Assembly: GCF_015350905.1 (NCBI RefSeq)
Contig: NZ_JADKRZ010000002.1
Span: 310,001-374,000 of the forward strand
DNA length: 64,000 nucleotides
Direction of reading: 5' to 3'
From: Curtobacterium sp. VKM Ac-2865
GTDB lineage: Bacteria; Actinomycetota; Actinomycetes; Actinomycetales; Microbacteriaceae
Shown here in pieces: positions 1-16,689 of this stretch. The notes below the pieces were generated by a model. It saw only the letters and a list, made by a program, of their open reading frames with translations. It did not search any database and was not told where the DNA came from. The translations under genes and the position numbers were made by a program. How positions within the stretch are numbered: position 1 is the stretch's first letter; every line of letters starts with the position of its first letter.

Positions 1-31
1 CGTAGCTCCCGAAGTGATGCGGATGAGCAAG

Positions 32-65
32 AAGAGCCTGCCCACGAGATCTTGGGCAGGCTCTT
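32..65 (-). terminator. Intrinsic terminator of the SDR gene
   Basis: A perfect 12-bp stem (AAGAGCCTGCCC at 32-43 with GGGCAGGCTCTT at 54-65) encloses a 10-nt loop just beyond the stop of the leftward SDR gene. There is no long T-run, which is common for terminators in high-GC actinobacteria. Confidence 0.7.
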
Positions 66-79
66 CGGGGTCGGTGCCC

Positions 80-793: not shown

Positions 794-961
794 GACCGTT
801 CCCGTCCGTCTCCGGAACCGTTTCCACAGACGGAACAATGCTCCGCTTAAAGACCATCGCCACACCAGCGTGGTTTCACTGAGGTTCGCTCCCCGCCACC
901 AGTCTCGATGGGCGATCGGCTATCGGACGCTTCGAGAGCGGCCCTCTGGCAGGGTGGTCAG

Positions 962-1690: not shown

Positions 1691-2055
1691 ACTCCGCCCC
1701 ACAAATCGATCAAGCTGATGCGACTGCGCGACACGAGCAGGAACGTGCTTCGCTCCGTCCTGTCCAGCTCTCGCAGGACGGATTCGAGCAGAGCGGGGAT
1801 CGAGGTGAAAGCCTCGCAGGGCGCTCGAGGGAGGTGTGCAGCGCGAACAACCCGCCGCCTAGTGCCATGCTTCGCTGGCATGGTCACGTCTCGACGAGGT
1901 GTGTTCCGACTCGGCTTTTAGTGAACCGCTACCGCAGGTGTGGCAGCCTGAGGCATGAAATCGCCCCCAGGAGCAACGAGCGCGCCGGGAACGTCCGCGT
2001 TGGACGCGGAGGCTCGGCTGAGGCGTCATGTGGGCACGGAAGTTGTCGCGTTTGA
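1691..2055. other. Gap without a convincing gene
   Basis: This convergent interval between the rightward 242-residue gene and the leftward hydrolase gene has only short frames of poor quality. A small hairpin (CCATGC at 1865-1870 with GCATGG at 1878-1883) could be a terminator. I see nothing else. Confidence 0.4.
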
Positions 2056-3273: not shown

Positions 3274-3608
3274 CAGTTGCGTGCTTCGCTCACCCGCGTC
3301 GCGGGCCCGCCATCGCCGCGAAATGGAATGCGCGCTGAACTCCGCCATCTGTCGCTCGCCCCTCCGGGAGTTGGAGACTCCCCCTCAACGGAGACCGTAT
3401 CGGGGATCTCGACCGGGCACGCTTCGCGGAGCTCCTGATGTCCGGTGAGGACGTCACCTGAATCAGCAACCAAGGTGAGCGCGTCCTTCCACACGTTGCG
3501 GAGAGCCCGCAGCGCCGGTCCGACGGAAGGACGGTACCCGCGGTGAATGAGAACATCACGCCGCGCTGCTCGGACCTCACGGGCAGAGCTATGAATCGCT
3601 CGTCCCAT
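3273..3608 (-). CDS. Small hypothetical protein coupled to the hydrolase
   Basis: This 111-residue frame ends in a TGATG overlap with the hydrolase-like gene, so the two are probably co-translated. The protein is basic at its N-terminus and has a central segment (about 28-70) of mixed helix character; the last 35 residues are low in complexity. I recognise no family. An alternative is that the hydrolase begins upstream in its own frame and this is a shadow frame. Confidence 0.4.
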   Translation of the reverse strand: MGRAIHSSAREVRAARRDVLIHRGYRPSVGPALRALRNVWKDALTLVADSGDVLTGHQELREACPVEIPDTVSVEGESPTPGGASDRWRSSARIPFRGDGGPATRVSEARN

Positions 3609-3724
3609 GGTCAGACGGCGTAGCCGCGGACTGGATGATCCGCGGTGCTCGCAGTCATCGTGAGTTGGACGGAGTGGTGGCGACCCAGACCAGAAGGACT
3701 GGATCCGCTACCGGCCAGCCCCAG

Positions 3725-3954
3725 CTACCGGGCAGGCGAGCGGTCCGCGGGATGCCGAGACAGCACGGCAGTGAATACACCTCCGACCAAAAGGACCAGA
3801 CCAACGCCCGCGATGAGGGACTCGCCAATCGCGTTCGGAGCATCGAGAACCGCATGCTCGTCGAACCAGGTCCGAGGATCGCGCCGTCGAAGTTGTCGAT
3901 GATGATGATGACCAGTCCCAGGAGAGCCGAAACCCGAGCCCACAACCGCTGCAT
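3725..3954 (-). pseudogene. Frameshifted small two-helix membrane protein
   Basis: Two overlapping leftward frames each hold half of what looks like one ~75-residue membrane protein. The frame starting at 3954 gives an N-terminal hydrophobic helix (VSALLGLVIIII, then DNFDGAILGP). The neighbouring frame then supplies WFDEHAVLDAPNAIGESL and a second helix (IAGVGLVLLVGGVFTAVL). The switch falls at about 3865-3875, where a single-base indel would join them. It is either a genuine frameshift or a sequencing error. Confidence 0.45.
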
Positions 3955-4048
3955 GCATCAGAGCATGGCTGATGGAACCGCAGCGCTGCTGAGAGCGCGT
4001 CGACGGCCAGCCAGCGCGGCAAGGAAAGCAGCTACGACTCTTGACGCG

Positions 4049-4744
4049 TTAAGGACGCGTCCGCTGTTCGCCTCGCCGTGCTCGTTTTCCGATGATCTTC
4101 CTGGCATCGGCGGCGAAAGCATCCCAGAACGGGGCGAGCCGGTGGTTATGGAATGCCGCCCGGTACACTTCGTCGTCGAACGCGGCGTTCGCGTACGCAG
4201 CACGAAGCCCGTCAAGAAACGCGATATTTTGCGTCTCCTCTGCTCGGGCGAGGACGCGGTCCTTATCCTTCCGACGATTGCTGTGCCCGTCGGGCGAGTA
4301 GTAGCCGCGATCGAGGTTCAGACGGGCGACGACGGTTCGGGCCCGGCTCTCCATCTCCGGTGGTCCGACAATGGTGAGGACATCGAGGGCACGTTTCACC
4401 GCTCCCAGCTCCTGGTCGATATCGGCTTTGAGCCCGAGGACTTCGGGGTCGTCCTTCGGTTCGTAGTCCGTGTCCATCCGCGGGGCGGACACGCGTCGTC
4501 CCCGCAGCTCGATGACGTCGTACGCATCACGGGTAGCCGTCATGAACGTCACGTACGCCTCCCGCCGCTTCTCCCGGAGCCATCCCTCGTGCTCGCGCCG
4601 ATTCGTCGCACGCGCCACGTAGAGGGCCGCACCCGCCGCCAGGAGGGCCCCCAGGCCAGCGACAGCCGGGGCGAGCCACGTCTCGACACCGGAATTGCTG
4701 GACACGCTCACGACAGCCGCTGAGGCGAAGGCAGACAAGTTCAC
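4049..4744 (-). CDS. Membrane-anchored hypothetical protein
   Basis: The 231-residue protein (GTG start at 4744) has one N-terminal membrane helix (about residues 24-46, WLAPAVAGLGALLAAGAAL) followed by a charged, mostly helical cytoplasmic or extracytoplasmic domain with many Arg, Glu and Asp residues. No catalytic motif is recognised. The frame stays open upstream to 4927, but that extension is basic and of low quality, and the GTG places the helix near the N-terminus. It is monocistronic and diverges from the PhzF gene. Confidence 0.6.
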   Translation of the reverse strand: MNLSAFASAAVVSVSSNSGVETWLAPAVAGLGALLAAGAALYVARATNRREHEGWLREKRREAYVTFMTATRDAYDVIELRGRRVSAPRMDTDYEPKDDPEVLGLKADIDQELGAVKRALDVLTIVGPPEMESRARTVVARLNLDRGYYSPDGHSNRRKDKDRVLARAEETQNIAFLDGLRAAYANAAFDDEVYRAAFHNHRLAPFWDAFAADARKIIGKRARRGEQRTRP

Positions 4745-5055
4745 GCGCCCGATTCTGCCGTTGACCGCCCTCGAACGGCAGCGGGCTCGGTGAACGGCGA
4801 GCCGGTGCGCCCGTCGCCCTTCTTCCTCAAATGCGTGTTGAGACGGGGCTCGCCGCTTGTTCTCGCCCTTCGGCGGCCCAAGTAGGGACGATGCAGGTTG
4901 CCGAGCCTGGCCGAAACGGATCCTCATGAGTTACAGATTTGGGCTAGAGCTCGCGCTTCGCCAGACGGCGGCTGAAACCGCCGTCCGGAAGAATCGGGCC
5001 ACCGGGACCGAATTGGCGCTCGTGCCCGAATCGGGCACTTCGATAGAACTGGAGG
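4745..5055. other. Divergent intergenic region
   Basis: About 310 bp between the leftward membrane-protein gene and the rightward PhzF gene. I see no gene; the only clear structure is the short palindrome just upstream of the PhzF start. Confidence 0.4.
5022..5038. promoter_or_regulatory. Palindromic operator candidate upstream of phzF-like gene
   Basis: GTGCCCGAATCGGGCAC is a perfect inverted repeat with 7-bp arms and a 3-nt centre. It ends 17 nt before the PhzF start, where a repressor dimer could block transcription. No regulator gene is adjacent, so the role is inference. Confidence 0.35.
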
Positions 5056-5886
5056 ATGACCTCACTTCCGGAGATCCTGCGGTTCCGCGCCTTCACCACC
5101 TCGAGCGAGGACCCGGCGTCTGGCAATCCGGCCGGGGTGGTCCTCGGCGCGGAAGAGCTGTCCAGCGACGAGATACTCGCGATCGCCGCCGACCTCGGCT
5201 TCAGCGAGACGGCGTTCCTCTCGTCGGTCACTCCCGGCTCGGCGCGGATCCGGTACTTCACCCCGCGCGCGGAGATCGCGTTCTACGGTCACGCGACGAT
5301 CGCATCCGGTGTGGTGCTCGCGCGACGCGGCGCGGGCCCGGTGGTCTCTCTGACGACGAACGCCGGCGCAGTACCCGTGGAGGTTCAGCACGACCGGGCA
5401 ACGCTCATCGCTGTCGACACGGCGGTCGAGCCGCTCGAGCCGGAACTACTCGACGAGTTGCTCGCCGCGCTCCGACTGGACCCCGAGGATCTCGACCCAG
5501 CGCTTCCGCCGGCCTTCCTCCGCGGCGGGAATCCTCACCCGATTGTTCCTGTCCACGCGGGTGTGCTCGCCCGCCACGACGGCGACGCGGTGCTCGCCCT
5601 GCAGGACCGCGAAGGCTGGGACGGCACGATCCCGGTGGTGCACCGCGCGAGCGCGACGCACTTCGTGAGCCGTAATCCGTTTCCGCGAGGCGGCATCCGC
5701 GAGGATCCGGCGACCGGCTCGGCCGCGGCCTCGCTCGGGGAGTATCTGCGGACGGGCGGCCACGTCGCTCCGCCCACCGAGATCACCGTCGAGCAAGGCG
5801 CCGAGACGGGCCGACCGTCACTGATCTCGGTGACGATCCCGGCGACGGGCCGAATCCGCGTCAGCGGAACGGCAGACGAGCTCTAG
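5056..5886 (+). CDS. PhzF-family isomerase/epimerase-like protein
   Basis: This 276-residue protein matches the PhzF family of paired-domain isomerases, whose best-known member isomerises a dihydro-hydroxyanthranilate in phenazine synthesis. Visible family hallmarks are GNPAG (23-27), the catalytic glutamate in FSETAF (Glu51), YGHAT (78-81) and the second-domain DPATGSA near residue 220. Length is as expected. No other phenazine genes are present, so the substrate is unknown. A GGAGG lies directly against the ATG with no spacer, so translation may instead use a nearby non-ATG codon or a leaderless mRNA. Confidence 0.85.
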   Translation: MTSLPEILRFRAFTTSSEDPASGNPAGVVLGAEELSSDEILAIAADLGFSETAFLSSVTPGSARIRYFTPRAEIAFYGHATIASGVVLARRGAGPVVSLTTNAGAVPVEVQHDRATLIAVDTAVEPLEPELLDELLAALRLDPEDLDPALPPAFLRGGNPHPIVPVHAGVLARHDGDAVLALQDREGWDGTIPVVHRASATHFVSRNPFPRGGIREDPATGSAAASLGEYLRTGGHVAPPTEITVEQGAETGRPSLISVTIPATGRIRVSGTADEL

Positions 5887-6039
5887 CAGAAGGAGCACCC
5901 TCGTTCTCGGTCACTTCCATCCGAACGGTGGCCGCGAGAGGCCAGATCGGGGGGGAGAACTCTCGGCCGCTACCGCCGTCAGCATGGGGATCCGTCAGCG
6001 GACGCCCGAAGCGGTGAGTTGAAGGCAAGCCGGCTGAGC

Positions 6040-6375
6040 AGGAGCGCCCACAATCAGAGCGACCTACCCCCCCCCCCCCCGAGAACCGCCTCGCGCGGGG
6101 TCGATCGCACCTTCCGAGCTGTGCCTGCCTGTCGTCGCTCCAGGACGCGACGCCACTGCAGTACCAACCCAGCAGCGTCGGCGCCGTTCCGAGCGCCAGA
6201 GCGGAGCGCTGGGAGGAACGCCTGGGTGACGGCGATGAGCACGAAGACGTTGGCTTCGTAGGCGGCGCGGAGTTGCTATGTCGACGTCCCCGTGATGTCC
6301 TCACCGCCCGGGTCCACACGGGCGTTGTTGACGAGGATGTCCAGGCTCCGACCGCAGATCCTCTTCGCAATAACC
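6040..6375 (-). pseudogene. Remnant of a second SDR gene
   Basis: Leftward reading gives LDILVNNARVDPGGEDITG ending at a stop near 6284, and then, after a break, AAYEANVFVLIAVTQAFLP near 6200-6265. These correspond to the consecutive NNAG and Nvxgxxxxtxaxlp segments of an SDR, so the gene is broken by stops and frameshifts. The N-terminal Rossmann motif and the YxxxK are not found. The rest of the ~670-bp interval after the PhzF gene (5887-6553) holds no intact gene. Confidence 0.55.
6067..6080 (+). repeat. C14 homopolymer
   Basis: Fourteen consecutive C residues lie inside the SDR remnant. This is very unusual in the rest of the window and is a slippage-prone tract or a sequencing/assembly problem. 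Confidence 0.8.
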
Positions 6376-6553
6376 GTCCGGGTAGCACCCGACGTTTGAA
6401 ACATCGGGAGCGATGGTCAAGAGTTCCAGAGAAGCAGACAAGCAGCGACCAGGGGCAGCGATGTGCCCATGCGCTAGGGTCTCGGATCGTCGTGTGCTCG
6501 ATATCTTTGTCCTGCTGTCCGTCATCGACTTGCGGTAGCTCGAGAGGAGCCTC

Positions 6554-7999
6554 ATGCACGAAGCCAGCATGCCCTCAGCGACTGGCGTCAGGATCGCGGG
6601 CGACCGCTATCAGTGGATGCATGCTTGGAGCGCGTGCCTAGATCTCCTCACGGATGCTGAAGACCCCACGTCTCTCAATCCCGGGGTCGCTGTCGGGGTG
6701 GAAGCGGCTGGCCTTGTTCCGCTCGACGACGTCGTGTATTACCGCGCAGCTCCACCGCACACCTACTGGCAGGTCAAGTGGGCGGTCGATGGCACATCTC
6801 CGGTGAACCTGGACTACGTGTCAAGAAAGGGTCTGCTGAAGCGGATCCGGGAACGCTGGTCTGAGATCACCTCGTCCGGCGAACCAGCCGAAGTGATACT
6901 CGTATCGCCGCGCGAAGTCGATCCGTACGACGAGCTGGCGTCCCGTCGAGATGCAAGGACCGGCAAGTTAGTCCCACGTGGCGCGGCAGAGCACCCCGTT
7001 CCATTGCGAGCATCACGGGACGCTTGGTCGGCGGCAGCTGACACATCCACCGAAGGGTTGCTCGCACTGCTCAGCGACATGCGCTTCGAAACCGGAGTCG
7101 ATGAGTTTCGGATCCGCCAGACGATCCAGTTGAAGATGCGAGCTTGTGGTTTACGCAGCGAGAGTAGCGACGTCGAAGCCGCGATCTCTTGGATCGAGCA
7201 GCAGGTCGTCGCCGGCCAGCGATACATCGAGCTCGCGGCAGTGACGGCGTATGCCGAAACTATGCGCCGGTCCGAACCCTGGAGTCGAATTTCGATCGCG
7301 ACGCTTCAGGTTGACCCGAACAGCCGAACCGCGCGCGCGGCCGTCGACTGGAACGGACGGATGGACGGAAATGGGGTCCCTCACGCCACCGTTGCACCGA
7401 AGGCGCCGCACACCTGGGCAGAGCTGGCGGCCGAGCTCGACGCGCTCCGCGCCGACGTCGCGCCAGCACAACGAATTCTCATCTCGGGGACAATGCGTCA
7501 AGCAACCGGATTCTATGTCGGATCTGTCTTTCGGCGCGTCCTCGGGTACGAGGTTGCCATCGCACAGGGCACCAAGCTTTGGACGAGTGAGGCTCGGTCG
7601 ACGCCATATGTGCCCGACGTTAAACTGCTCGAGATAGGAGCGGGCGATGAACTTGCGATGCTCACGTGCGTATCTAATGGCGCAGCCGACAACGATGTGC
7701 GCGCCTACCTTGAGAAACACCAACCGTCCGTCGGACGCCTCCTCATCGTCAGGCCCAAGGACGGGGTTACCGGGTTAACCGCCATCCCCGACGCGGAAGC
7801 GGCGGCAGCATACGCGCAAGCGGCCCTTACGACGGTCCGCAGCCACGCTCCCAGAGGGAAAGTCGTCCACATGTTCCAAGCTGGTCCGCTTGGGCTATCC
7901 GTCCTCCTCGGGCATTACTGGAATCGGGTCGCTCCTACTGCAGTATACGAGCACCTCGGCGGGCGCGATTACGAACGCGCCTTCGATGTTCAAGGGTGA
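6554..7999 (+). CDS. cap4: CBASS effector: nuclease-SAVED protein (Cap4-like)
   Basis: The 481-residue protein has the two-domain layout of Cap4 effectors, which degrade DNA after binding a cyclic oligonucleotide. The N-terminal domain carries the restriction-nuclease-like signature Glu50, Asp58-Asp59 and Gln73-x-Lys75 (VEAAG...LDDV...WQVKW), as in DUF4297-type nucleases. A helical middle follows, and from about residue 300 the C-terminal SAVED sensor domain, ending in the typical HMFQAGPLGLSVLLGHYWN segment and the AVYEHLGGRDYERAF tail. The start at 6554 has a good ribosome site (GAGAGGAG). It precedes the CD-NTase gene by 478 bp on the same strand, where effectors more often sit downstream or directly adjacent. 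The assignment rests on motifs and on the CD-NTase/E2/E1/JAB neighbours. Confidence 0.82.
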   Translation: MHEASMPSATGVRIAGDRYQWMHAWSACLDLLTDAEDPTSLNPGVAVGVEAAGLVPLDDVVYYRAAPPHTYWQVKWAVDGTSPVNLDYVSRKGLLKRIRERWSEITSSGEPAEVILVSPREVDPYDELASRRDARTGKLVPRGAAEHPVPLRASRDAWSAAADTSTEGLLALLSDMRFETGVDEFRIRQTIQLKMRACGLRSESSDVEAAISWIEQQVVAGQRYIELAAVTAYAETMRRSEPWSRISIATLQVDPNSRTARAAVDWNGRMDGNGVPHATVAPKAPHTWAELAAELDALRADVAPAQRILISGTMRQATGFYVGSVFRRVLGYEVAIAQGTKLWTSEARSTPYVPDVKLLEIGAGDELAMLTCVSNGAADNDVRAYLEKHQPSVGRLLIVRPKDGVTGLTAIPDAEAAAAYAQAALTTVRSHAPRGKVVHMFQAGPLGLSVLLGHYWNRVAPTAVYEHLGGRDYERAFDVQG

Positions 8000-8477
8000 A
8001 ACGTCACCGAAGGGACATGAGCCCGACATCGAACGACGGACCGCGGCAAAACCGAGTGAGGTGCTCATCAGCAACATCCGCGTAAATTCTTCAGTTCAAC
8101 GCCCCTCAAGGCCGAAGCTCACTCCGAGCCACACCGATGAATACTGCCTGTCGTAGCACCCCAGGTCAATCTATCCACTTGAATTCCCCTGCGCACCCAT
8201 GGCGAATATTGGTTAAACCGCGTAGCGGCCAGTGAGGAAGGACCCGAGCATGCCCTTCCAGTTGGTTTCAGATGCGTCTCCGAGGGTGGTCGGATGGTTG
8301 GTGAAGTCGAACAGGATTCGCAACTCAGGGCGACCAGACGCTGGCGGCTCACGAACGCCTCGCGAATCCCAACTCGTTTCGATGCGGCCATGATCGCCCT
8401 CCTCGCTCGAACTCCGTGAACTGTCGGTGATTGGCAGTAGCCTGAGCTCACCACCAGCTTCCACCCGAGGAGTGCAC
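8000..8477. other. Gap between effector and CD-NTase genes
   Basis: No intact gene is visible. A leftward remnant (see 8213-8398) lies in the middle. TTGAAT at about 8179 and GAATAT about 19 nt later form a weak candidate promoter. The distance suggests that the CD-NTase operon has its own promoter. Confidence 0.4.
8213..8398 (-). pseudogene. Possible RelE/HigB-type toxin remnant
   Basis: The leftward frame ending at 8213 contains VREPPASGRPELRILFDF and then ETNWKGML. This order resembles the KELRPGS...RILFAFDP...GDKxGNWKxW core of phage-derived HigB-like toxins, with a deletion in between and the C-terminus lost. No intact antitoxin is next to it. The similarity is from memory of the family pattern, so confidence is low. 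Confidence 0.25.
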
Positions 8478-9431
8478 ATGAGTGTCCTGGATTCTTTCGC
8501 CACTTTCCAGACCGTGGTCAACGCGGATCCCGATCAGGTGACCGAAGCGCGCCGGCGTCGCCGGCTCTTCGAGGCCGCCTTCAGCACCGAATCAGACGTA
8601 ACCGAGCTCGTCCCGTCGGGATCGCTCGCACGTGGCACGCATAAAGCTCCCATCCACGATGTGGACCTGATCGTCGTCTTTGACCCCGAGGCGCACAGTT
8701 CTTGGGGTCAAGACGGAGACTCGGCCGAGGACGCGCTCGAGTATGCGGGCTCCGCTGTCAACCGTCTCCTGGGAGCAACCTACGGGACCGCCGGTCACGA
8801 AGTCCGCCTGGCGAAGCCCCGAAACCACGCAGTGAAGTGCTTTCTCGATGATCCCGAGGCAGAAGACGCTTTCACCGTCGACGTGATGCCGGCGCTCCGC
8901 CAGAACAATGGCTTCTTGATCCCCGAAAAGCTCTCGAAGCGGTGGATCACGGCAGACCCTGAGTACCTGATCGCTGAGGCAGCCCGAAAGCACGCCGAGT
9001 GGCGCCAGTACGCCGGCGCCGTGCGCATGCTGAAGTACTGGGCGAGCAAGCAGTCCTTCAAGATCAAGTCTCTGGTGATGGAGGTTCTTGCGCTCGACCA
9101 CCTCCCAACGACGTCCAACCGGTCGGCCGCCGTCCAGAGCTTCTTCACAGCCGCCGCCTATCACGTCGAATCCGGCCTGACAATCGAGGACCCAGCGGGG
9201 CTTTGCGGACCAGTCCAGCCGGACCTGGACACGGACCAGTTGGCTGAGGCACTCCGCTCTGCGGCGCAATCGGCAACCAGTGCGGGAACAGCTCGAAGCA
9301 ACAACGATGAAGCGGCAGCGAGCCGACACTGGCGCGACATCTTCGGCGATGCATTCCCCGAGATCGCTGCGATTGGCGTCGCGGCCACGCCGGACCGCCC
9401 CCGGACCGTAAAGGACAGCCCGCAGGGATGA
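8478..9431 (+). CDS. cdnD-like: CBASS cyclic-oligonucleotide synthase (CD-NTase)
   Basis: The 317-residue protein is a nucleotidyltransferase of the cGAS/DncV-like type that makes a cyclic nucleotide signal upon phage infection. The GS motif is at Gly48-Ser49 (PSGSLARGTH), the metal-binding pair at Asp61-x-Asp63 (IHDVDLIVVF) and the third Asp at 135 (FTVDVMPAL); the helical OAS1-like half follows. The ATG at 8478 has a clear GAGGAG ribosome site and fits the conserved core better than the upstream frame. The chain ends in Ser-Pro-Gln-Gly: a C-terminal glycine is what the Cap2 E1/E2 machinery conjugates in type II CBASS. The stop overlaps the E2 gene start (ATGA). The clade, and so the nucleotide product, cannot be decided here. 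Confidence 0.85.
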   Translation: MSVLDSFATFQTVVNADPDQVTEARRRRRLFEAAFSTESDVTELVPSGSLARGTHKAPIHDVDLIVVFDPEAHSSWGQDGDSAEDALEYAGSAVNRLLGATYGTAGHEVRLAKPRNHAVKCFLDDPEAEDAFTVDVMPALRQNNGFLIPEKLSKRWITADPEYLIAEAARKHAEWRQYAGAVRMLKYWASKQSFKIKSLVMEVLALDHLPTTSNRSAAVQSFFTAAAYHVESGLTIEDPAGLCGPVQPDLDTDQLAEALRSAAQSATSAGTARSNNDEAAASRHWRDIFGDAFPEIAAIGVAATPDRPRTVKDSPQG

Positions 9432-9979
9432 CCCGACCCGATGACGGAGGTCGCAGCAGCTGGCTCGACTGGGATCCGGCCCGACTGCGCCGCGACACTC
9501 AGGAGCTTGCGCTGTACGCGCCGGACCTCGCCTTCCGACGCGACGCCAACTTCGAATTTGGGGCGTGGGGCGGGACTGTTCCGATCTGGCCGTTCGAGCG
9601 TCCCGCGCCGGAAAGGCTTCGCACCCTCGTGCCCGAGCCCCTTGAGATCATGTTGGCCTACCCACCCGCGTACCCGGTCGTCAGTCCTAGGGTCTACCCG
9701 GTGAGCCCGGCACCCGAGCTGATGGAGATGTCCGAGTCCATTTGGCATGTGGCTCCAGCGGGAACGCTGTGCCTTCTTCAATCAGAAGGCTTCTGGGACC
9801 CGAGGAGCAGCATCACCGACATCATCGCGAAATGCGCCGGTTGGCACATCGAGTACGCACTTATGCGCCTCCAGCTCATCGAGCGGATGACGGAGCGAGG
9901 CATTGCGGAGGATCCGACGCTCGATGCACTCATCGACAGGGTGACGAGCGAAGCATCGGAAGATCAGAGCAACGGATGA
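9428..9979 (+). CDS. CBASS E2-like conjugating protein, separate gene
   Basis: The 183-residue protein is a ubiquitin E2-like fold. The conjugation motif is visible as His107 and Cys115 (WHVAPAGTLCLL), followed by a FWDP segment (122-125) and a C-terminal helix, as in bacterial E2 domains of Cap2. In most type II CBASS loci this domain is the N-terminal half of Cap2; here it is its own gene, joined to its neighbours by 4-nt ATGA overlaps at both ends, so co-translation with the CD-NTase and E1 is likely. By analogy, Cys115 would carry the CD-NTase C-terminus as a thioester before transfer to a target. Confidence 0.82.
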   Translation: MTRPDDGGRSSWLDWDPARLRRDTQELALYAPDLAFRRDANFEFGAWGGTVPIWPFERPAPERLRTLVPEPLEIMLAYPPAYPVVSPRVYPVSPAPELMEMSESIWHVAPAGTLCLLQSEGFWDPRSSITDIIAKCAGWHIEYALMRLQLIERMTERGIAEDPTLDALIDRVTSEASEDQSNG

Positions 9980-11289
9980 GCGGGCCATTCATTGCCCTGG
10001 TCTCCGACGCCGTCCGGCTGTTAAGGAATGCGAGCGCCACAGGCGGACTGATTCGATTAGGGTATTCCGAACCGGACCTTCGATACACGGTCAATGGGGT
10101 CGAGATCGCTCGAGATGCGGTGGTGGACGTTCGCATCAATCGCGAGTACGAGGCGCTGAGCTGGGGAGACGCGGACCGCTGGGGGCAGTGGTCGTCCAGC
10201 GCAGACCCAGCACTCTGCGCGACCTACCTACAACTGATTCGACGACCAACCGGCTACGTCCGGCTAGACGAGCTACGGCGATACGTCCCCGGTCTCGAGG
10301 ATCCAGGGAACGGCCACGGTTTGCTCCTGCTGCGGCACGACGAGATCCCAGCCGAGCTGGCCAGCCTCGGAATGCCGGATTTCACGGGCTGGATTCTCGA
10401 CCGGAATGGTGCTGCTCCGTTTCAAGTGCACGCCGAACCCGACGCGTTAGGCGCGATACAACTTGGCACAGGCTGGCCGCTCCAGGGCCTTCAGAGCAAT
10501 ACGGTCTCCGTCATCGGAACAGGTTCGATTGGAAGTGCCGCCACGCGCGCGTTGGCTGACGTTGGGATCGGCACCATCAATCTGATCGACCCAGACCGAC
10601 TTCTTTGGCATAACATCGTCCGGCATCAACTTGGTCCAAGCGCAATCGGCCGGTACAAAGTTGATGCCCTCGCGGACGCGCTGCGCGATCGTTCCCGTCC
10701 AAACGCCGCTACCGGATCGACCTCGTACCGCACTCACCGAGTGGATGCTGTCGAGCAAGCCGCGGATCTTTTCCCCCTCATTCACCGCGCGCAAGTTGTG
10801 CTGTGCGCAGCGGACGGTATCGCCCCGAGGCGAGTCGTCAATCACCTCGCCCGACTCGCAGGAACGCCCGCGATCTTCGCGTGTGTGCTCGACGACGGCT
10901 CCGTCGGCGAGATTTTCCGCTCGAGGCCAGGCACGAAGTTCGGATGCCTTCTTTGTCATCGCGCTTGGCTCGCAGAACAAGGGTGGATGGATCCCGAAGC
11001 AGACCAGGAGTTGGCCTACGGGACCGGCACCAGTCACAAGCCGATGACCGCAGTGCCGTCGGATCTCCAGCTCATCGGACAGCTGGCCGCGCAAATAACT
11101 CTCGCAACGCTTCTCGAATCACGGCACGGTAGACCGGGGGCAAGCCTCCCAAACGAACACGCAGTCATTGGCCTTCGTCCGACCGCCGACCTTGGAGGGC
11201 CGTTCAACGTAGCCCACGCCGGCGAGGTCCGCTGGGCGTCCGTCCCTCCGCCCCGCACCGATTGCCCGACATGTTCTCTCGCAAATTGA
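9976..11289 (+). CDS. cap2 (E1 part): CBASS E1/ThiF-like activating protein
   Basis: The 437-residue protein is an E1/ThiF-family adenylating enzyme. After about 170 N-terminal residues of unassigned fold comes a Rossmann motif GTGSIG (181-186), an acidic ribose-binding site in INLIDPD (Asp205) and the RHQLG segment. Two CxxC pairs (Cys324/Cys327 and Cys430/Cys433) probably hold a structural zinc. Other cysteines (277, 303) are candidates for the thioester residue, but I cannot assign it. The ATG at 9976 overlaps the E2 stop (ATGA). With the E2 gene it makes up the two halves of a split Cap2, expected to activate the C-terminal glycine of the CD-NTase. Confidence 0.82.
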   Translation: MSGPFIALVSDAVRLLRNASATGGLIRLGYSEPDLRYTVNGVEIARDAVVDVRINREYEALSWGDADRWGQWSSSADPALCATYLQLIRRPTGYVRLDELRRYVPGLEDPGNGHGLLLLRHDEIPAELASLGMPDFTGWILDRNGAAPFQVHAEPDALGAIQLGTGWPLQGLQSNTVSVIGTGSIGSAATRALADVGIGTINLIDPDRLLWHNIVRHQLGPSAIGRYKVDALADALRDRSRPNAATGSTSYRTHRVDAVEQAADLFPLIHRAQVVLCAADGIAPRRVVNHLARLAGTPAIFACVLDDGSVGEIFRSRPGTKFGCLLCHRAWLAEQGWMDPEADQELAYGTGTSHKPMTAVPSDLQLIGQLAAQITLATLLESRHGRPGASLPNEHAVIGLRPTADLGGPFNVAHAGEVRWASVPPPRTDCPTCSLAN

Positions 11290-11756
11290 CGCTATCATTG
11301 CCGTCTTTACGCATCGAAAGATCAGCGTACGACAGTATTCTGCACGAGTCCGCAGTATCTCCGGTCGGTATCGAAACGGGGGGCATTCTCCTTGGTCATG
11401 ATACTGGCACCGAGATTCTGATAACTTTTGCGGGGGATCCAGGCCCAAAAGCGTTCCAAGCGCCGAACCGATTTCTCCGGGACGGCGAGCATGCTTCAGC
11501 CTTAGCGGCATCCGCCTGGGACCATGACAGGTCGCTGTGGATCGGCGAATGGCACACTCACCCGCGAAGTGCCCTGGAACCGAGCGCTGTGGATCTACGC
11601 ACGTACCGCAAACACACCAACGACCCTGATCTGTCCTTCGAGCGGTTCGTCTCAATCATCGTGCGTCCACGCAATGCAGGTTCCTCGCTTGTGGGATGGG
11701 TGATTGACGAAGCGCTCTATCGAGTTCCGCTGGAGATCGCTTGCGGAGAGCGGTAA
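11262..11756 (+). CDS. cap3: CBASS JAB/JAMM peptidase (Cap3-like)
   Basis: The 164-residue protein has a complete JAMM metalloprotease signature: Glu38 (GIETGG), His98-x-His100 (EWHTHP), Ser108 and Asp111 (SAVD), with the normal spacing, so it should bind zinc and be active. In type II CBASS, Cap3 removes the CD-NTase from its conjugates and so opposes Cap2. The gene overlaps the 3' end of the E1 gene by 28 nt; a second ATG at 11271 is an equally good start. A 14-bp palindrome (AAAGCTGCAGCTTT, 11755-11768) touches the stop codon and may end the operon. Confidence 0.85.
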   Translation: MPDMFSRKLTLSLPSLRIERSAYDSILHESAVSPVGIETGGILLGHDTGTEILITFAGDPGPKAFQAPNRFLRDGEHASALAASAWDHDRSLWIGEWHTHPRSALEPSAVDLRTYRKHTNDPDLSFERFVSIIVRPRNAGSSLVGWVIDEALYRVPLEIACGER

Positions 11757-11830
11757 AGCTGCAGCTTTCGAACCTGAAGCCGACACGCATTCAGCTACCT
11801 CGCTTGCATGGTTCTAAACCCAGACGAGAG

Positions 11831-12001
11831 TCAACCTGCCGATCGCCGCGTCGTTTCCAGCACGACGCAGGCAAGGCCGGCGACGAGCGCGACGATCAGC
11901 ACGACGAAACTCGCCCCATGACTTGTCGGATTGAGGATCCGCACCAGCAGCGCGAACGCGATCACAACGACACCGACCACGGTGAGACTCCGAGCAGACA
12001 T
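11831..12001 (-). CDS. Small two-helix membrane protein
   Basis: This 56-residue protein consists of two membrane helices (about 6-25 and 33-50: LTVVGVVVIAFALLVRIL and FVVLIVALVAGLACVVL) joined by a short polar turn. A TTG at 12013 would add four residues. No family is recognised. It is probably co-directional with the next small membrane protein gene. Confidence 0.6.
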   Translation of the reverse strand: MSARSLTVVGVVVIAFALLVRILNPTSHGASFVVLIVALVAGLACVVLETTRRSAG

Positions 12002-12085
12002 GGGGCGAGTCAATCAGACGGGCGCCGTCCGATAAACGGTCGTCCACCGGACACATCCATGGTCCTTGGCGTCTGCTGACCCCTG

Positions 12086-12316
12086 TTACACGCGAGATCG
12101 GCCTCTGCTTGACCACGAGAAGAGCCAGGCCACGAGCAGCAAGATGACACCGACAAAGGGGAAAAGGACGCCGACTACCAGGTTCCATCGGCTTACGAGC
12201 AGAACGACGCCGACCACCAGCAATACGCCGCCGATTAGCAGGTCCAAACGCGCACGATGTGGCGGATCCGCAGAATCGCTCGAAGGCTTCATCGCATACA
12301 CGGTACCGGGCAGCAC
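12086..12316 (-). CDS. Small two-helix membrane protein
   Basis: The protein has up to 76 residues, with a short soluble N-terminus and two membrane helices (LLIGGVLLVVGVVLLV and LVVGVLFPFVGVILLLVAWLF). The start may be the GTG at 12316 or the ATG at 12292. It is distinct in sequence from the 56-residue protein downstream. Function unknown. Confidence 0.6.
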   Translation of the reverse strand: MLPGTVYAMKPSSDSADPPHRARLDLLIGGVLLVVGVVLLVSRWNLVVGVLFPFVGVILLLVAWLFSWSSRGRSRV

Positions 12317-12352
12317 GACGTCCGATAGCCGATGGGCTATCGAGACGCGGGA

Positions 12353-12757
12353 TCAGCGCAGACGCACGAGGCCGGCGTGGGTGGGTCGGAAGCCGCAGGC
12401 CCCCTCGTAGAAGGGCACCATGTCCTCGCCGTAGTCGACGAACAACCACTCGCAGCCGGCGGATCGGACCGCGTCGACGGCGTAGCGGACCACCGCTGTT
12501 CCAAGGCCCCGATGTTGGTAGGTCGGATGCGTCTTCGTGTCGATGAGAAACGCATGGTCTGCACCATCCCAGGCGACGTTGACGAAGCCGACCAGCTCAC
12601 CACCGGGGGCTCTGCCCGCGACCCAGCCCAGGGAGTGCGGACTTATCCGGTCCCACCAGCCGGGTTCGGGTGACCCTCCATGAGCCGCGGTGAGGCCTGC
12701 TAGCTCGTCGTCACTGATGATCGAACGCCAGGTGAGCGTCACGTCGTTGTGCTGCAT
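12353..12757 (-). CDS. GNAT-family N-acetyltransferase
   Basis: The 134-residue protein has the GNAT fold order: N-terminal beta/helix, the DTKTHPTYQHRGLGTAVVR acetyl-CoA-binding segment with the Q/R-x-x-G-x-G signature (HRGLG) in the middle, and the typical PFYEGACGFRPT near the C-terminus. It probably transfers an acetyl group from acetyl-CoA to a small molecule; the substrate is unknown. The ATG at 12757 has a GGAGC site upstream. Length is near the family minimum but complete. Confidence 0.85.
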   Translation of the reverse strand: MQHNDVTLTWRSIISDDELAGLTAAHGGSPEPGWWDRISPHSLGWVAGRAPGGELVGFVNVAWDGADHAFLIDTKTHPTYQHRGLGTAVVRYAVDAVRSAGCEWLFVDYGEDMVPFYEGACGFRPTHAGLVRLR

Positions 12758-12811
12758 CGTCCCAAGCTCCCACGAGGAGGCTGAGTTCGCCAGGCACCGC
12801 TGGACGATCGG

Positions 12812-13651
12812 CTAACGAGACGGGTGGTGATGCTTCCGGGCAGCGATAGAGAACATCATTGGCAAGCGTTCGTTGCCGTCAGCAAGCGCGTAACCAGCCG
12901 GCGTCTTGACGAGATTCGGAATGGGCTCCCATGGCATGGCGGTGTATTCGTGGAAGGCTTCGATTTGAAGCCCCGCAGCCAAAATCGAGGTGAAGATTTC
13001 GTCCAGGGAGTGGGGCCACTCGTACGTGGTTCGGTTCGTGAGAAGGGTGTCGCTCGCGTACGTGGTCCCGGAGTCGAATCGTTGGGCTTCGCCCGCTCCG
13101 AAGTACGGCTCGGTGACGACGAGGGCGGTGTCTTGTCGGTCGTATTGGAGGGTCATGACCATGGGGTGTGCTTCGTAGAGGAAGAACAGCCCGCCCGGTT
13201 TCAGGAGCCGTTCGACGGCGCGCGCCCACATGGTGAGGTCCGGGAGCCACGCGAGGACGCCGACGGTTGTGTAGACAACATCGAATTGCCGGCCGAGCTG
13301 ATCGGGGGCGTCTTCGTTGGATGTTTGGACGAAGGACGCATCGACGCCGGCCCGAGCAGCAAGCGAGGTGGCTGCTGCGATCGCGTCACCGGAGAAGTCG
13401 GTGCCGACGACTCGTGCCCCAAGCCTGGCGAGGCTGATCGAGTCAACCCCGATGTGGCATTGAAGGTGCACGACGTCGAGCCCGGTGAGAGACCCGTCGG
13501 GGAGGTGGGGAGCCATGACCTTGGCTTCGAACATGACCCGGTTGGCGGAGGGGTCGTCGGCGAACTCAGCCGCCTTGTAGGCGACGAGGTGATCTGAAAC
13601 TCGTTCGTCCCAGTTCGCCCGGTTCGTCTCGATCTGGTCATGAGTGGACAC
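12812..13651 (-). CDS. SAM-dependent class I methyltransferase
   Basis: The 279-residue cytoplasmic enzyme has a class I methyltransferase core: motif I is the variant LDVVHLQCHIGVDSISLA (about 58-75), motif II VVGTDFS follows, then FDVVYTTVGVLAWLPDL and LLKPGGLFFLYE. The HLQCHxG form of motif I is typical of a family of uncharacterised actinobacterial and firmicute methyltransferases. The GTG start at 13651 follows a GGGGG stretch. Substrate unknown. It is in the same direction as the GNAT gene 54 bp downstream and may share a transcript. Confidence 0.8.
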   Translation of the reverse strand: MSTHDQIETNRANWDERVSDHLVAYKAAEFADDPSANRVMFEAKVMAPHLPDGSLTGLDVVHLQCHIGVDSISLARLGARVVGTDFSGDAIAAATSLAARAGVDASFVQTSNEDAPDQLGRQFDVVYTTVGVLAWLPDLTMWARAVERLLKPGGLFFLYEAHPMVMTLQYDRQDTALVVTEPYFGAGEAQRFDSGTTYASDTLLTNRTTYEWPHSLDEIFTSILAAGLQIEAFHEYTAMPWEPIPNLVKTPAGYALADGNERLPMMFSIAARKHHHPSR

Positions 13652-13981
13652 GGCAACCCCCTAGTGAATGAGCAAAGCCGAGCAGCTTCCCAGAACGCTC
13701 CGCAGGCCGCAACACGTGCAAGGGGAAGGAACGGGAGTCCCATCCCAGTAGGCGATCGGCAGCCGGACTCGGCAGCGTCGCGAACGCGGGTCAATGGCTA
13801 GGACCAAGGCCGCTGCATCGCTGAGGTCGTCCCACTCGCGCTGGCTGTTGGGAGCCTTCGTCTCACATAGATGTTCCGCGATCTTTCGCACTGAAGGTGC
13901 GTGAGGCGGACGTGTCACGCGAGCTGCCCGGCCCTGGCCTTTCGGGCAGGACCCTGGCGACGCCCGCCCGCGCGGACGGCG

Positions 13982-14010
13982 ACAAGTTGTGTGCGGAGGA
14001 GACAACTTGT
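13982..14010. promoter_or_regulatory. Inverted repeat in the 13652-14124 gap
   Basis: ACAAGTTGT (13982-13990) and ACAACTTGT (14002-14010) face each other across 11 nt, upstream of the leftward methyltransferase gene. It may be an operator. The rest of this ~470-bp gap shows no convincing gene; a 114-residue leftward frame there is Arg/Pro/Ser-rich and I do not believe it. Confidence 0.3.
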
Positions 14011-14124
14011 GTGTGAAGTGAAACAGGTTGTCGAACGCCTCGCTACGTATCCAGAGCTAGGACCGACTCGTGATGGATCGCCTGACGCGGGCTGCGTCGA
14101 GACGGCGGCCGATCGCAGGCGTGG

Positions 14125-14499
14125 TCAGATCGGCACCGAGTCGAACCGCTCGTCGATCTGCGGGTCGTAGAGCGGGAGATGCAGCGCCGCCATCGCCTGG
14201 ATGACCAGGTTGTACTGCTCTCCTGACATCCACGAGCAGCTCACGGTGACGCTCTCGGGCGAGTAGCCGGCATCGATGCTGGCGCGCTGGTCCGGCGAGA
14301 AGAGCATGGTCTGTTCGCCGCCGTCGGCGCGACGGGCCTCGACCGTCCAGTCCGGGAACGCCACGATGAGCGCCTGCTCCGCCGCGTCGAGGTCGAGCAG
14401 ATCGAGCCCCGCGACCGGCTTGCCCTCCATCAGGGCCTCGTACACAACGCGAGCGTCGAGGAGCTCGCTCGTTCTCCAGAACACGAACTGCTGGCTCAT
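14125..14499 (-). CDS. Hypothetical soluble protein
   Basis: This 124-residue acidic protein starts at an ATG with a strong ribosome site (GAGAGGGAG). It has no signal peptide or membrane helix and looks alpha/beta. The first 40 residues (QQFVFWRTSELLDARVVYEA) are reminiscent of small immunity- or antitoxin-like proteins only in size and charge; no family is recognised. Confidence 0.65.
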   Translation of the reverse strand: MSQQFVFWRTSELLDARVVYEALMEGKPVAGLDLLDLDAAEQALIVAFPDWTVEARRADGGEQTMLFSPDQRASIDAGYSPESVTVSCSWMSGEQYNLVIQAMAALHLPLYDPQIDERFDSVPI

Positions 14500-14670
14500 C
14501 GCATCTCCCTCTCGGCGGCGTCCACAGACTCCGCTCCCACCATGCCACACCCGGTCGATGAGCACCGCAGACCTCGACGCACAGCTGAGCGAGATCTTCG
14601 AGCACCGCCGTCGGGACGACATTGCCCCGACCAACGCCGCCGGGAACGCGACACATGGCAGGGTTGCGTC

Positions 14671-15081
14671 ATGCAGGCGGGCGGAAGCGGGAGCCGGGTT
14701 CCGGCATGGGGTGAGCGGTCTGCTGTGTCGATTCGACGTCGCGGCTCTGCGTGGGCAGTATCAGGCATCGTCGTCGCCGCGACGGGGCTCACGGCAGCAC
14801 TGATCGGCGCGGTGCTGGGGGTGTCCGCGCTGCTGGGCAGTGGTCTCATCCATGCCGCCAGCCAAGGGGAGGCCGGTCACGGGCACCTGTTCAGGGAGAT
14901 CACCCGGATCGGTGGCTTCTATGTCGTCATGCCGTTGGCCGTGATTGCAGTGGCGTGCACGGTGACAGCGTGGCGGCGTACGCGTGCGCCGGACCGGTCG
15001 CGTGCGACGACGGTAGTTGCAACCGTCTTGACCTCATGTCTGGTGCTGGTGTCGCTGGTCACAACCCTGATCGCGAGTTGA
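14671..15081 (+). CDS. Three-helix membrane protein
   Basis: The 136-residue protein has three or four membrane helices (about 28-60, 82-100 and 114-134), including GLTAALIGAVLGVSALLGSG and FYVVMPLAVIAVACTV. The N-terminus is basic. The ATG at 14671 was picked because upstream sequence in frame is Arg-rich and implausible. Function unknown. It diverges from the 124-residue gene. Confidence 0.6.
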   Translation: MQAGGSGSRVPAWGERSAVSIRRRGSAWAVSGIVVAATGLTAALIGAVLGVSALLGSGLIHAASQGEAGHGHLFREITRIGGFYVVMPLAVIAVACTVTAWRRTRAPDRSRATTVVATVLTSCLVLVSLVTTLIAS

Positions 15082-15221
15082 CGGATCGGCCCGACAGCGG
15101 CACCCCCATGAGCCCAGGACGCTCCTCCCGAGGGCGGTAGGGCGATATGGCCGTCCGCGCTTCTGTCTCGGACACGATGGGTGGCAGTCGGACAAGTGAG
15201 CTGGCGGACGACAACAGTTGC

Positions 15222-16589
15222 CTACTGCGGCATGTCCACGAACCGAGAGAACATCCCGTGGAACGCCACCGTGATGGTGTCGGTCGGCCCGTTGCGGTGC
15301 TTGGCCACGATGAGGTCGGCCTCACCCTGCCGCGGGTTGTCCTTCTCGTACGCCGACTCGCGGTGCAGCAGGATGACCATGTCGGCGTCCTGCTCGATGG
15401 AGCCGGACTCACGCAGGTCGGAGATCATCGGCTTCTTGTCGGCACGCTGCTCGGGCCCACGGTTCAGCTGGGACAGGGCGATGACGGGGACCTGGAGCTC
15501 TTTCGCCATGAGCTTGAGCGCACGCGAGAACTCGGAGACCTCCTGCTGGCGGCTCTCGACCTTCTTGCCCGAGGTCATCAGCTGCAGGTAGTCGATGACG
15601 ACGAGCTTCAGGTTGTGCTGCTGCTTGAGGCGACGGCACTTCGCACGGATCTCGACGAGCGTCATGTTGGGGGAGTCGTCGATGTAGAAGGGGGCGTCGT
15701 TGATGCGCCCGCGGGTCTGCGCGATGGTGGTCCAGTCGCGGGAGTCCACGGTGCCCTTGCGCATGTTCTGCAGCGGCACGCTGGTCTCGGCGGAGAGCAG
15801 ACGCATCGCGATCTCGGCACGCCCCATCTCGAGCGAGAAGAAGGCAGCCGTCTGGTTGTGCTTCAGGGCGGCCGCGCGGCACAGGTCGAGCGCCAGGGTC
15901 GACTTGCCGAGTGCGGGTCGGGCGGCGACGATGATCAGCTGTCCGGGGTGGAAGCCGTTCGTCAGGCCGTCGAGCTGGGCGAACCCGGTGGGCACGCCGG
16001 TCATCTGGCCGTCGCGGCCCTTGGCGGCCTCGATCTCGTCGATGGCGGCGGAGATGGCCTCGGTCAGGGGGACGTAGTCCTCGGTCTGCACGCCGCCGGC
16101 GACGTTGTAGACCTCGGCCTGGGCGCTGTTGACGAGGTCGGTGACCTCACCTTCCGACGCGTAGCCCATCTGCACGATGCGGGTGCCGGCGTCGACCAGG
16201 CGACGCAGGACCGCCTTCTCGGCGACGATCGAGGCGTAGTACCCGGCGTTCGCCGCGGTCGGCACCAGGCTCGTCATGCTGTGCAGGTACTCGGCGCCGC
16301 CGGCACGGGACAGCAGCCCGGTCTTGGTCAGCTCGTCGGTGACGGCGATGACGTCGGTCGGCTCGCCGTGGGAGTACAGCGACAGCATCGCGTCGAAGAT
16401 GACCTCGTGCTTGGGGATGTAGAAGTCCACGCCACGGGCGGTCTCGATGACGTCGGCGACGGCGTCCTTCGACAGGAGCATGCCGCCGATGGTCGACTGT
16501 TCGGCCAGCAGGTCGTGCGGCGGAGTGCGCTCCATGCCACCGCGCTCCGAGTACGTCTGCGGTGCCGGGTCCAGATGCGCGATCGACAC
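15222..16589 (-). CDS. dnaB: Replicative DNA helicase DnaB
   Basis: The 455-residue protein is the hexameric replicative helicase. The helical N-terminal domain begins with PPHDLLAEQSTIGGMLL, and the C-terminal RecA-like ATPase domain has Walker A ARPALGKST, Walker B LVVIDYLQLM, and the QLNRGPEQR and RESGSIEQDAD motifs. The GTG at 16589 has a GAGGAG ribosome site; the longer frame upstream is not needed. No intein is present. It is transcribed toward the accessory arm, and its upstream region holds a cluster of DnaA-box-like sites. Confidence 0.95.
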   Translation of the reverse strand: MSIAHLDPAPQTYSERGGMERTPPHDLLAEQSTIGGMLLSKDAVADVIETARGVDFYIPKHEVIFDAMLSLYSHGEPTDVIAVTDELTKTGLLSRAGGAEYLHSMTSLVPTAANAGYYASIVAEKAVLRRLVDAGTRIVQMGYASEGEVTDLVNSAQAEVYNVAGGVQTEDYVPLTEAISAAIDEIEAAKGRDGQMTGVPTGFAQLDGLTNGFHPGQLIIVAARPALGKSTLALDLCRAAALKHNQTAAFFSLEMGRAEIAMRLLSAETSVPLQNMRKGTVDSRDWTTIAQTRGRINDAPFYIDDSPNMTLVEIRAKCRRLKQQHNLKLVVIDYLQLMTSGKKVESRQQEVSEFSRALKLMAKELQVPVIALSQLNRGPEQRADKKPMISDLRESGSIEQDADMVILLHRESAYEKDNPRQGEADLIVAKHRNGPTDTITVAFHGMFSRFVDMPQ

Positions 16590-16689
16590 ACGTGCTCCTC
16601 TTGTTGTCCGTACGGGCCGCCCCCGCAAGCCAGTCCTACCCCGAGCAACCGACATCCCCCGGTCGCGCGCTCACCGTACGGGGTGCAAG

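What the first reader, a model, noticed from the sequence alone, without database searches (positions are those of the whole stretch)
8478..11756. Type II CBASS with E2 and E1 as separate, overlapping genes
The order is CD-NTase, E2, E1, JAB, with 4-nt ATGA overlaps between the first three. In known type II CBASS the E2 and E1 domains are one protein (Cap2); here the 183-residue E2 (Cys115) and the 437-residue E1 (with ~170 extra N-terminal residues) are split. The CD-NTase ends in a glycine, as needed for conjugation. So this looks like a two-chain Cap2, closer to eukaryotic E1 plus E2, and may be a scarcely described variant.
Basis: partly seen in the sequence, partly recalled or inferred. 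Interest (0 to 1): 0.75.

Follow-up and report, generated by a model that had tools for sequence, protein, structure and literature searches.

The report
Two-chain type II CBASS immune operon
A bacterial anti-phage operon carries its two ubiquitin-like attachment enzymes as separate proteins instead of the usual single fused one, in a long-lived family seen in actinobacteria, and its activating enzyme lacks the cysteine that such enzymes normally use.

Summary
In detail: CD-NTase (8478-9431), E2 (9428-9979), E1 (9976-11289) and JAB (11271-11756) overlap in one operon behind a SAVED effector (6554-7999). The split is real and old. In 60 of 60 loci with both genes, E2 and E1 are separate ORFs; 24 sampled E1s form one clade; the E1 frame relative to E2 differs between loci (27 versus 29 of 56), which argues against sequencing error and frameshifting. 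The CD-NTase ends in Gly in 57 of 57 and E2 Cys115 is invariant in 58 of 58. PADLOC already models both proteins. Nine full-text searches found no printed description, but the key type II papers were not held. Its N-terminal 160 residues do not match fused Cap2 linkers and may be a degenerate JAB domain (limited evidence). I infer that E1 adenylates the CD-NTase tail and E2 Cys115 takes it, perhaps directly.

The parts
6554..7999 (+). Cap4-like effector with a SAVED sensor domain (481 aa); nuclease by PADLOC label
   Evidence: Pfam SAVED 3.5e-20; PADLOC endonuclease effector PDLC00741 1.2e-137 and SAVED_PDDEXK 1.4e-135
7997..8391 (-). decayed remnant of a DUF6602 gene, in two frames, ending at the end of the effector gene
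   Evidence: tblastn of the L010 DUF6602 protein: residues 23-141 at 8326-7997, residues 1-25 at 8391-8317, E 1.6e-25
8478..9431 (+). CD-NTase (317 aa), active-site D61, D63, D135
   Evidence: SMODS 1.4e-10, PADLOC cyclase 3.8e-142; D61 and D63 56 of 56, D135 55 of 56
9399..9428 (+). conserved CD-NTase tail PRTVKDSPQG, the predicted conjugation end
   Evidence: terminal Gly 57 of 57, PQG 55 of 57, behind a variable linker
9428..9979 (+). stand-alone E2 (183 aa), catalytic Cys115 (9770-9772), His107
   Evidence: PDLC00860 3.1e-63; Cys115 and His107 in 58 of 58
9976..11289 (+). stand-alone E1 (437 aa)
   Evidence: PDLC00828 1.4e-157, ThiF 2.4e-20; D205, N213, R216, K228, D280 invariant; C324, C327, C430, C433 in 56 of 56
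9976..10455 (+). N-terminal domain of E1 (about residues 1-160), possibly a degenerate JAB fold
   Evidence: profile match to the JABs of the same loci, score 38.8, P 1.7e-5, shuffles at most 22.3; JABs of other systems only 23.4, no better than a 31-column match to a fused Cap2 profile, 23.5; Pfam none
10957..11088 (+). crossover-loop region of E1 (residues 328-371) without a cysteine
   Evidence: 0 of 56 split E1s have Cys at residues 328-383, nor L101 nor L045
11271..11756 (+). JAB (Cap3-type) isopeptidase, JAMM ligands E35, H95, H97, S105, D108
   Evidence: Prok-JAB 2.5e-8; the five residues in 50 of 50 full-size JABs

Best explanation
This is a type II CBASS operon of an Actinomycetota lineage in which the Cap2 job is done by two chains. 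Shown: gene identity, order, overlaps, conservation of the split, of the Gly tail and of E2 Cys115, and absence of the usual E1 cysteine. Inferred: E1 binds ATP and adenylates the CD-NTase C-terminal Gly317; because E1 has no crossover-loop cysteine, E2 Cys115 most likely takes the CD-NTase straight from the adenylate as a thioester, then passes it to a lysine of an unknown target; the JAB protein cuts it off again. Conjugation primes the CD-NTase, phage infection triggers its cyclic oligonucleotide, and the SAVED effector upstream is activated and degrades DNA. The confidence given is for the two-chain conjugation module; the direct step from adenylate to E2 is about even odds within it.
For: Profiles. 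60 of 60 loci with both genes split. 24 E1s one clade, 97/83. Four-gene co-inheritance r 0.86-0.95 over 48 loci. E1 and E2 models hit the same 2 of 299 family genomes, neither alone. Terminal Gly 57 of 57, a feature reported only for operons with Cap2 and Cap3 (PMC10097602, passages). E1 nucleotide residues invariant; JAMM ligands 50 of 50. No Cys in the E1 crossover region in 58 of 58.
Against: In B. cereus Cap2 loss of either the E2 or the E1 cysteine abolished immunity (PMC11153139, passages), so a Cys-less E1 could be inactive or use another cysteine: C277 is invariant and C303 is Cys in 54 of 56. Six of 17 fused E1s also lack the crossover Cys, so that trait is not special to the split. 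No JAB above the score cut was found in L036, L060 and L061. Contact between E2 and E1 was not tested.
Confidence: 0.72

Rival explanations
1. E1 does form its own thioester, through a non-canonical cysteine such as C303 or C277, so the cascade is a normal E1-to-E2 relay on two chains.
For: C277 is invariant in 56 of 56 and C303 is Cys in 54 of 56. In four of the six fused E1s without the usual crossover Cys a cysteine stands about 20 residues earlier (alignment), so the active cysteine may move.
Against: C277 lies three residues before the adenylation Asp280 and C303 is Ser in two members; C324, C327, C430 and C433 look like the structural zinc set (recalled from MoeB/ThiF).
Confidence: 0.28
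2. The E1 is a degenerate or regulatory subunit; E2 is charged by other means, or the module does not conjugate the CD-NTase.
For: No crossover-region Cys in 58 of 58; N-terminal domain without assigned function.
Against: ATP-site and zinc-type residues are invariant and the CD-NTase Gly tail is kept in 57 of 57.
Confidence: 0.12
3. E2 and E1 are one Cap2 protein, broken here by a sequencing error or joined by programmed frameshifting.
For: The genes overlap by 4 nt in the window.
Against: 0 of 60 loci have both in one ORF. E1 is in frame +1 in 27 and +2 in 29 of 56 loci, with overlaps of 1 to 25 nt by script-chosen starts, and the E2 part after D166 varies from 9 to 51 residues.
Confidence: 0.02
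4. The split arose by simple fission of a fused Cap2 (a question of origin, not a rival function).
For: Holding the split E1s and the fused CBASS E1s together as one clade was not rejected in the first tree (p-AU 0.226).
Against: The N-terminal domain does not match the linkers of seven fused groups (P 0.26-0.65). In the corrected tree the same test gave p-AU 0.041, post hoc, with long branches, and rows chosen by similarity to these E1s.
Confidence: 0.4

Closest known systems
Type II CBASS with fused Cap2 (E. coli TW11681, B. cereus, E. cloacae systems)
   Same: CD-NTase with C-terminal Gly or Ala, E2 and E1 activities, JAB isopeptidase, effector gene in the operon.
   Different: E2 and E1 are separate genes here; E1 lacks the crossover-loop cysteine; the N-terminal E1 domain does not match fused linkers.
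PADLOC-DB models PDLC00860 (E2, 188 positions) and PDLC00828/PDLC00829 ('E1-E2', 431 and 426 positions)
   Same: These cover the two proteins of this family (58 of 58 E2s match PDLC00860; the window E1 matches both E1 models over its length).
   Different: The label 'E1-E2' hides that the protein matched here has no E2 domain.
Bil operon / Iyer type 6d (separate ubiquitin-like protein, E2, JAB, E1)
   Same: E2, E1 and JAB as separate genes (Iyer et al. 2006, PMC1779556, section 14 read whole, Table 1 in passages; the name Bil from PMC11354881, passages).
   Different: No ubiquitin-like protein gene here; a CD-NTase takes its place.
Eukaryotic ATG7 (E1) with ATG3 or ATG10 (E2)
   Same: An E1 with an N-terminal domain plus a separate E2; Cap2 is described as resembling E2-bound ATG7 (PMC12355090, passages).
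   Different: ATG7 has a catalytic cysteine on its crossover loop (same passages); no evidence here that the N-terminal domains are related.
Iyer type 6e E1 with an N-terminal JAB domain
   Same: If the N-terminal domain is a degenerate JAB, the JAB-E1 layout matches.
   Different: Those operons carry ubiquitin-like repeat proteins; not compared directly here.

Membership tests
Type II CBASS | CD-NTase with intact active site | tested here: met
   SMODS 1.4e-10; D61, D63 56 of 56, D135 55 of 56
Type II CBASS | E1, E2 and JAB genes in the operon | tested here: met
   window. In the family, L036, L060 and L061 had no JAB above 40 bits
Type II CBASS | CD-NTase C-terminus Gly or Ala | tested here: met
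   Gly in 57 of 57
Type II CBASS | effector gene with nucleotide sensor | tested here: met
   SAVED 3.5e-20 in the window; Cap4-like 21, TIR-SAVED 24, neither 12 of 57 loci
Type II CBASS | conjugation of the CD-NTase to targets | not testable with these tools
   needs biochemistry
Cap2 | one polypeptide E2-linker-E1 | tested here: not met
   0 of 60 loci have both in one ORF
Cap2 | E2 catalytic Cys | tested here: met
   Cys115 58 of 58
Cap2 | E1 catalytic Cys in the crossover loop | tested here: not met
   0 of 58 split E1s, against 11 of 17 fused E1s and a MoeZ-like protein
Cap2 | linker ('wing') domain that holds the E2 | tested here: inconclusive
   no profile match to the linkers of seven fused groups; no structure
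Bil / type 6d operon | ubiquitin-like beta-grasp protein gene | tested here: not met
   genes overlap without room from CD-NTase to JAB; ORFs under 80 aa elsewhere were not listed
JAB (MPN) fold for the E1 N-terminal domain | sequence-profile similarity to JAB | tested here: inconclusive
   own JABs 38.8 against at most 22.3 in 200 shuffles; other JABs 23.4 over 63 columns against at most 16.8, but a fused Cap2 profile reached 23.5 over 31 columns; Pfam shows no JAB among the 25 of 30 families listed for 56 members

The most novel reading that the evidence does not exclude
A ubiquitin-like cascade with a single catalytic cysteine: a cysteine-less E1 with a pseudo-JAB head adenylates the CD-NTase tail, and a separate E2 attacks that adenylate directly. 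The conjugation machinery would then have been assembled in CBASS independently of the fused Cap2.
Probability: 0.25. Interest if true: 0.75.

Novelty: new variant of a known kind. Interest (0 to 1): 0.52.

Why it matters
Separate E1 and E2 chains let the CD-NTase cascade be taken apart step by step, which a fused Cap2 does not allow easily. A conserved E1 without its cysteine would show that a working thioester cascade can skip the E1 thioester, which bears on how ubiquitin-type enzymes arose from MoeB/ThiF-type adenylating enzymes. The E2 is annotated 'hypothetical protein' in all five plasmid records that hold it, and PADLOC labels the E1 'E1-E2', so surveys may misclassify these systems.

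Tried and rejected
Sequencing frameshift or programmed frameshift: rejected.

N-terminal E1 domain as the Cap2 linker: no match. One search ran hhalign with a faulty option, so one search repeated it locally for seven groups: linkers P 0.26-0.65; whole proteins P 0.17-0.74 except a 31-column match (P 0.024, score 23.5) to the E2 part of the L066-type profile. That score equals the 23.4 that JABs of other systems gave, so the JAB idea rests mainly on the JABs of the same loci. Pfam showed no JAB in the table (25 of 30 families shown).

Tree tests of origin: unresolved (p-AU 0.226, with two rows wrongly cut, 0.041 after correction; joining the split E1s with the L066-type fused E1s was disfavoured, 0.020 and 0.029).

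Phages: three short matches, two of them annotated moeB. Viral contigs: 94 pattern matches, no relative. tRNA in 1-25000: none. Promoter scan 6000-12500: none, terminators fewer than in shuffles. Solved structures for the E2: best 0.36 and, with the profile, 0.58 to a ubiquitin-conjugating enzyme, not significant.

Literature: answered searches listed no paper on separate E1 and E2 genes in CBASS that I could recognise; several lists were capped and I opened only eight papers, in passages or one section. Ledvina 2023, Millman 2020, Burroughs 2015 and Chambers 2024 were not held, so absence from print is not shown.
Full report
Observation. The window holds, on the + strand, a SAVED effector (6554-7999), CD-NTase (8478-9431), E2 (9428-9979), E1 (9976-11289) and JAB (11271-11756). 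The overlaps CD-NTase/E2 and E2/E1 are both ATGA. Profiles confirm each identity. The E2 is weak in Pfam (0.02, below the cut-off) but strong in PADLOC (PDLC00860, 3.1e-63). The E1 matches PDLC00828 over its whole length (1.4e-157); that model has 431 positions although its label is 'E1-E2'. So both genes were already known to PADLOC as CBASS proteins. The nearest solved CD-NTases are 6p8u, 6p82 and 6p8j (E 7.7e-19 to 1.8e-17), then E. coli CdnC 6p80 (7.5e-9).

Family. A scan of the genome collection with an alignment of six E1s gave 55 loci. By record title (my reading of the genus names) 54 are Actinomycetota. The exception, L019, is a Dehalococcoidia metagenome bin whose E1 is identical to that in L018 and L059, possibly a binning error. 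In the plasmid collection 5 of 181 matching records cover at least 80% of the E1, one of them broken (L007); the only 5 records with the E2 are the same five; all are Arthrobacter or Streptomyces. The scan patterns came from actinobacterial proteins, which biases it. In the window's taxonomic family the E1 model (E up to 1e-30) and the E2 model (E up to 1e-15) hit the same 2 of 299 genomes. In the phylum 131 of 396 genomes have some match at 1e-12, mostly to the ThiF part; 2 of 396 have a near full-length E1 and one more a fragment.

The split. With profiles on six-frame ORFs, 60 loci (window included) had both E2 and E1, and in 0 of 60 were they in one ORF. L019 and L063 lacked a detectable E2 (contig start; fragment) and L009 is a fused outgroup; these were not counted. 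Two of the 60 are exact duplicates (L017, L059), and in L007 the E1 itself is broken. Of 56 non-duplicate loci with starts set by script (window and L007 not among them), E1 lies in frame +1 relative to E2 in 27 and +2 in 29, with overlaps mostly of 14 (21 loci), 4 (16), 7 (10) or 11 nt (4). A conserved frameshift product would need a fixed frame. L101, from another genome of the phylum, is a further split locus.

One unit. Over 48 loci with all four genes, pairwise distances of CD-NTase, E2, E1 and JAB correlate at 0.86-0.95, 0 of 999 permutations as high. JAB is not universal: none above 40 bits in L036, L060 and L061. Effectors are exchanged: Cap4-like 21, TIR-SAVED 24, neither 12 of 57 loci (L002, L009, L063 and three duplicates dropped), with 7 label changes on a quick E1 tree of the 48 loci. 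Six of the 12 'neither' loci have a DUF6602 gene beside the operon.

Active sites. CD-NTase: G48, D61, D63 in 56 of 56, D135 in 55; terminal Gly in 57 of 57 and PQG in 55, behind a variable linker. The paper PMC10097602 (passages) reports that a terminal Gly or Ala is highly conserved in 1,583 cGAS proteins from operons with full-length Cap2 and Cap3 but not in other architectures. E2: Cys115 and His107 in 58 of 58. JAB: E35, H95, H97, S105, D108 in 50 of 50; JABs outside 130-190 aa (L008, L026, L043, L052) were dropped, as was L007. E1: D205, N213, R216, K228, D280 invariant; C324, C327, C430, C433 in 56 of 56, read as the zinc set by likeness to MoeB and ThiF (recalled). No E1 of 56 has a cysteine between residues 328 and 383; five have one at 384 or 406. 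L101 and L045, left out of that alignment by oversight, have none either. By eye in the alignment, 11 of 17 fused E1s (one of them from a 6A-MBL system) and a MoeZ-like protein do have a cysteine at the crossover position. The six without it (L066, L070-L074) were found by similarity to L066 and form one subfamily; four of these six have a cysteine about 20 residues earlier. Three other E1-like proteins (L102, L103, L110) lack it too. So the missing cysteine is universal in the split family but not unique to it.

N-terminal domain of E1. About 160 residues stand before the adenylation domain. They do not match the linkers of seven fused groups in local profile comparison (P 0.26-0.65). They match the JAB family of the same loci over nearly their whole length (probability 78, P 1.7e-5), while CD-NTase and E2 profiles do not (P 0.21 and 0.13). 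In one search the score 38.8 exceeded all 200 column shuffles (at most 22.3) and the reversed profile (13.8). Thirteen JABs from other systems gave 23.4 over 63 columns, above 200 shuffles (at most 16.8), but the L066-type fused profile reached 23.5 over 31 columns in its E2 part, so this second test does not discriminate. Pfam listed no JAB for the 56 E1s (25 of 30 families shown). At most it is a pseudo-JAB, and without a structure this stays a proposal.

Origin. In the corrected E1-domain tree (45 rows, 24 of them split E1s) the split E1s are one clade (97/83). Whether they share a CBASS-only ancestor with fused Cap2s is open: p-AU 0.226 in the first tree, where two rows had been cut wrongly, and 0.041 after correction; the test is post hoc and long branches are present.

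How it works. The studied fused systems link the CD-NTase C-terminus to Cap2 and join it to lysines, with Cap3 reversing it (PMC10097602 and PMC11153139, passages). Cap2 is described as an E2-bound ATG7 look-alike with a wing domain that holds the E2 (PMC12355090, passages). The conserved Gly tail, E2 Cys, E1 nucleotide site and JAMM site here argue for the same reaction on two chains. The missing E1 cysteine suggests that E2 Cys115 attacks the adenylate directly; a moved E1 cysteine is the main rival.

Comparison with the literature. Iyer et al. 2006 (PMC1779556; section 14 read whole; Table 1 in passages) list the nucleotidyltransferase operon (row 6b) with a fused E2+E1, and separate E2, E1 and JAB with a ubiquitin-like protein (row 6d). 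The searches showed me no description of separate E1 and E2 in CBASS. Passages only were seen of PMC10419184, PMC11354881, PMC13373217 and PMC13424991. The main type II CBASS papers were not held, so I cannot exclude that they mention it.

Verdict. A real, old and coherent variant of type II CBASS.

Noticed in passing
window 7997-8391 (-): A decayed DUF6602 gene lies between effector and CD-NTase and stops at the end of the SAVED effector gene, as if the effector module had replaced an older DUF6602 partner such as that seen in Curtobacterium (L010, L011).
   Followed up: partly
L010, L011, L037, L039, L041, L053: Six of the 12 split-CBASS loci without a recognised SAVED effector carry a DUF6602 gene next to the operon: a candidate alternative effector.
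   Followed up: partly
L066, L070-L074 (fused Cap2): A fused Cap2 subfamily (Deinococcus, Klebsiella, Sinorhizobium, Roseobacter, Acinetobacter, Jannaschia) lacks the usual E1 crossover cysteine and the zinc cysteines; four of the six have a cysteine about 20 residues earlier.
   Followed up: partly
L061 3573-6831 and 8222-12794: Virgisporangium ochraceum has a split system and, about 1.4 kb downstream, what looks like a second CBASS with a fused Cap2 (weak CD-NTase match).
   Followed up: no
L103 2150-5093 (-): An E1, a JAB and a weakly E2-like gene side by side with no CD-NTase profile match; this E1 is among the closest non-CBASS relatives found and also lacks the crossover cysteine.
   Followed up: partly
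window 1-16500: G+C is about 60-70% here against about 72-75% from 17 to 20 kb, in keeping with an accessory region beside a dnaB-like gene (15222-16655, -; label recalled).
   Followed up: no
L016/L017 and L018/L019/L059: Identical genes under different organism names: all four genes in L016/L017 and in L018/L059, the E1 in L019 (its JAB differs). Several are metagenome bins, so misbinning or very recent transfer is likely.
   Followed up: no
L007 and L065: Broken copies: the Streptomyces cathayae E1 is split across frames, and a Klebsiella plasmid Cap2 is interrupted by an IS5-like element.
   Followed up: no
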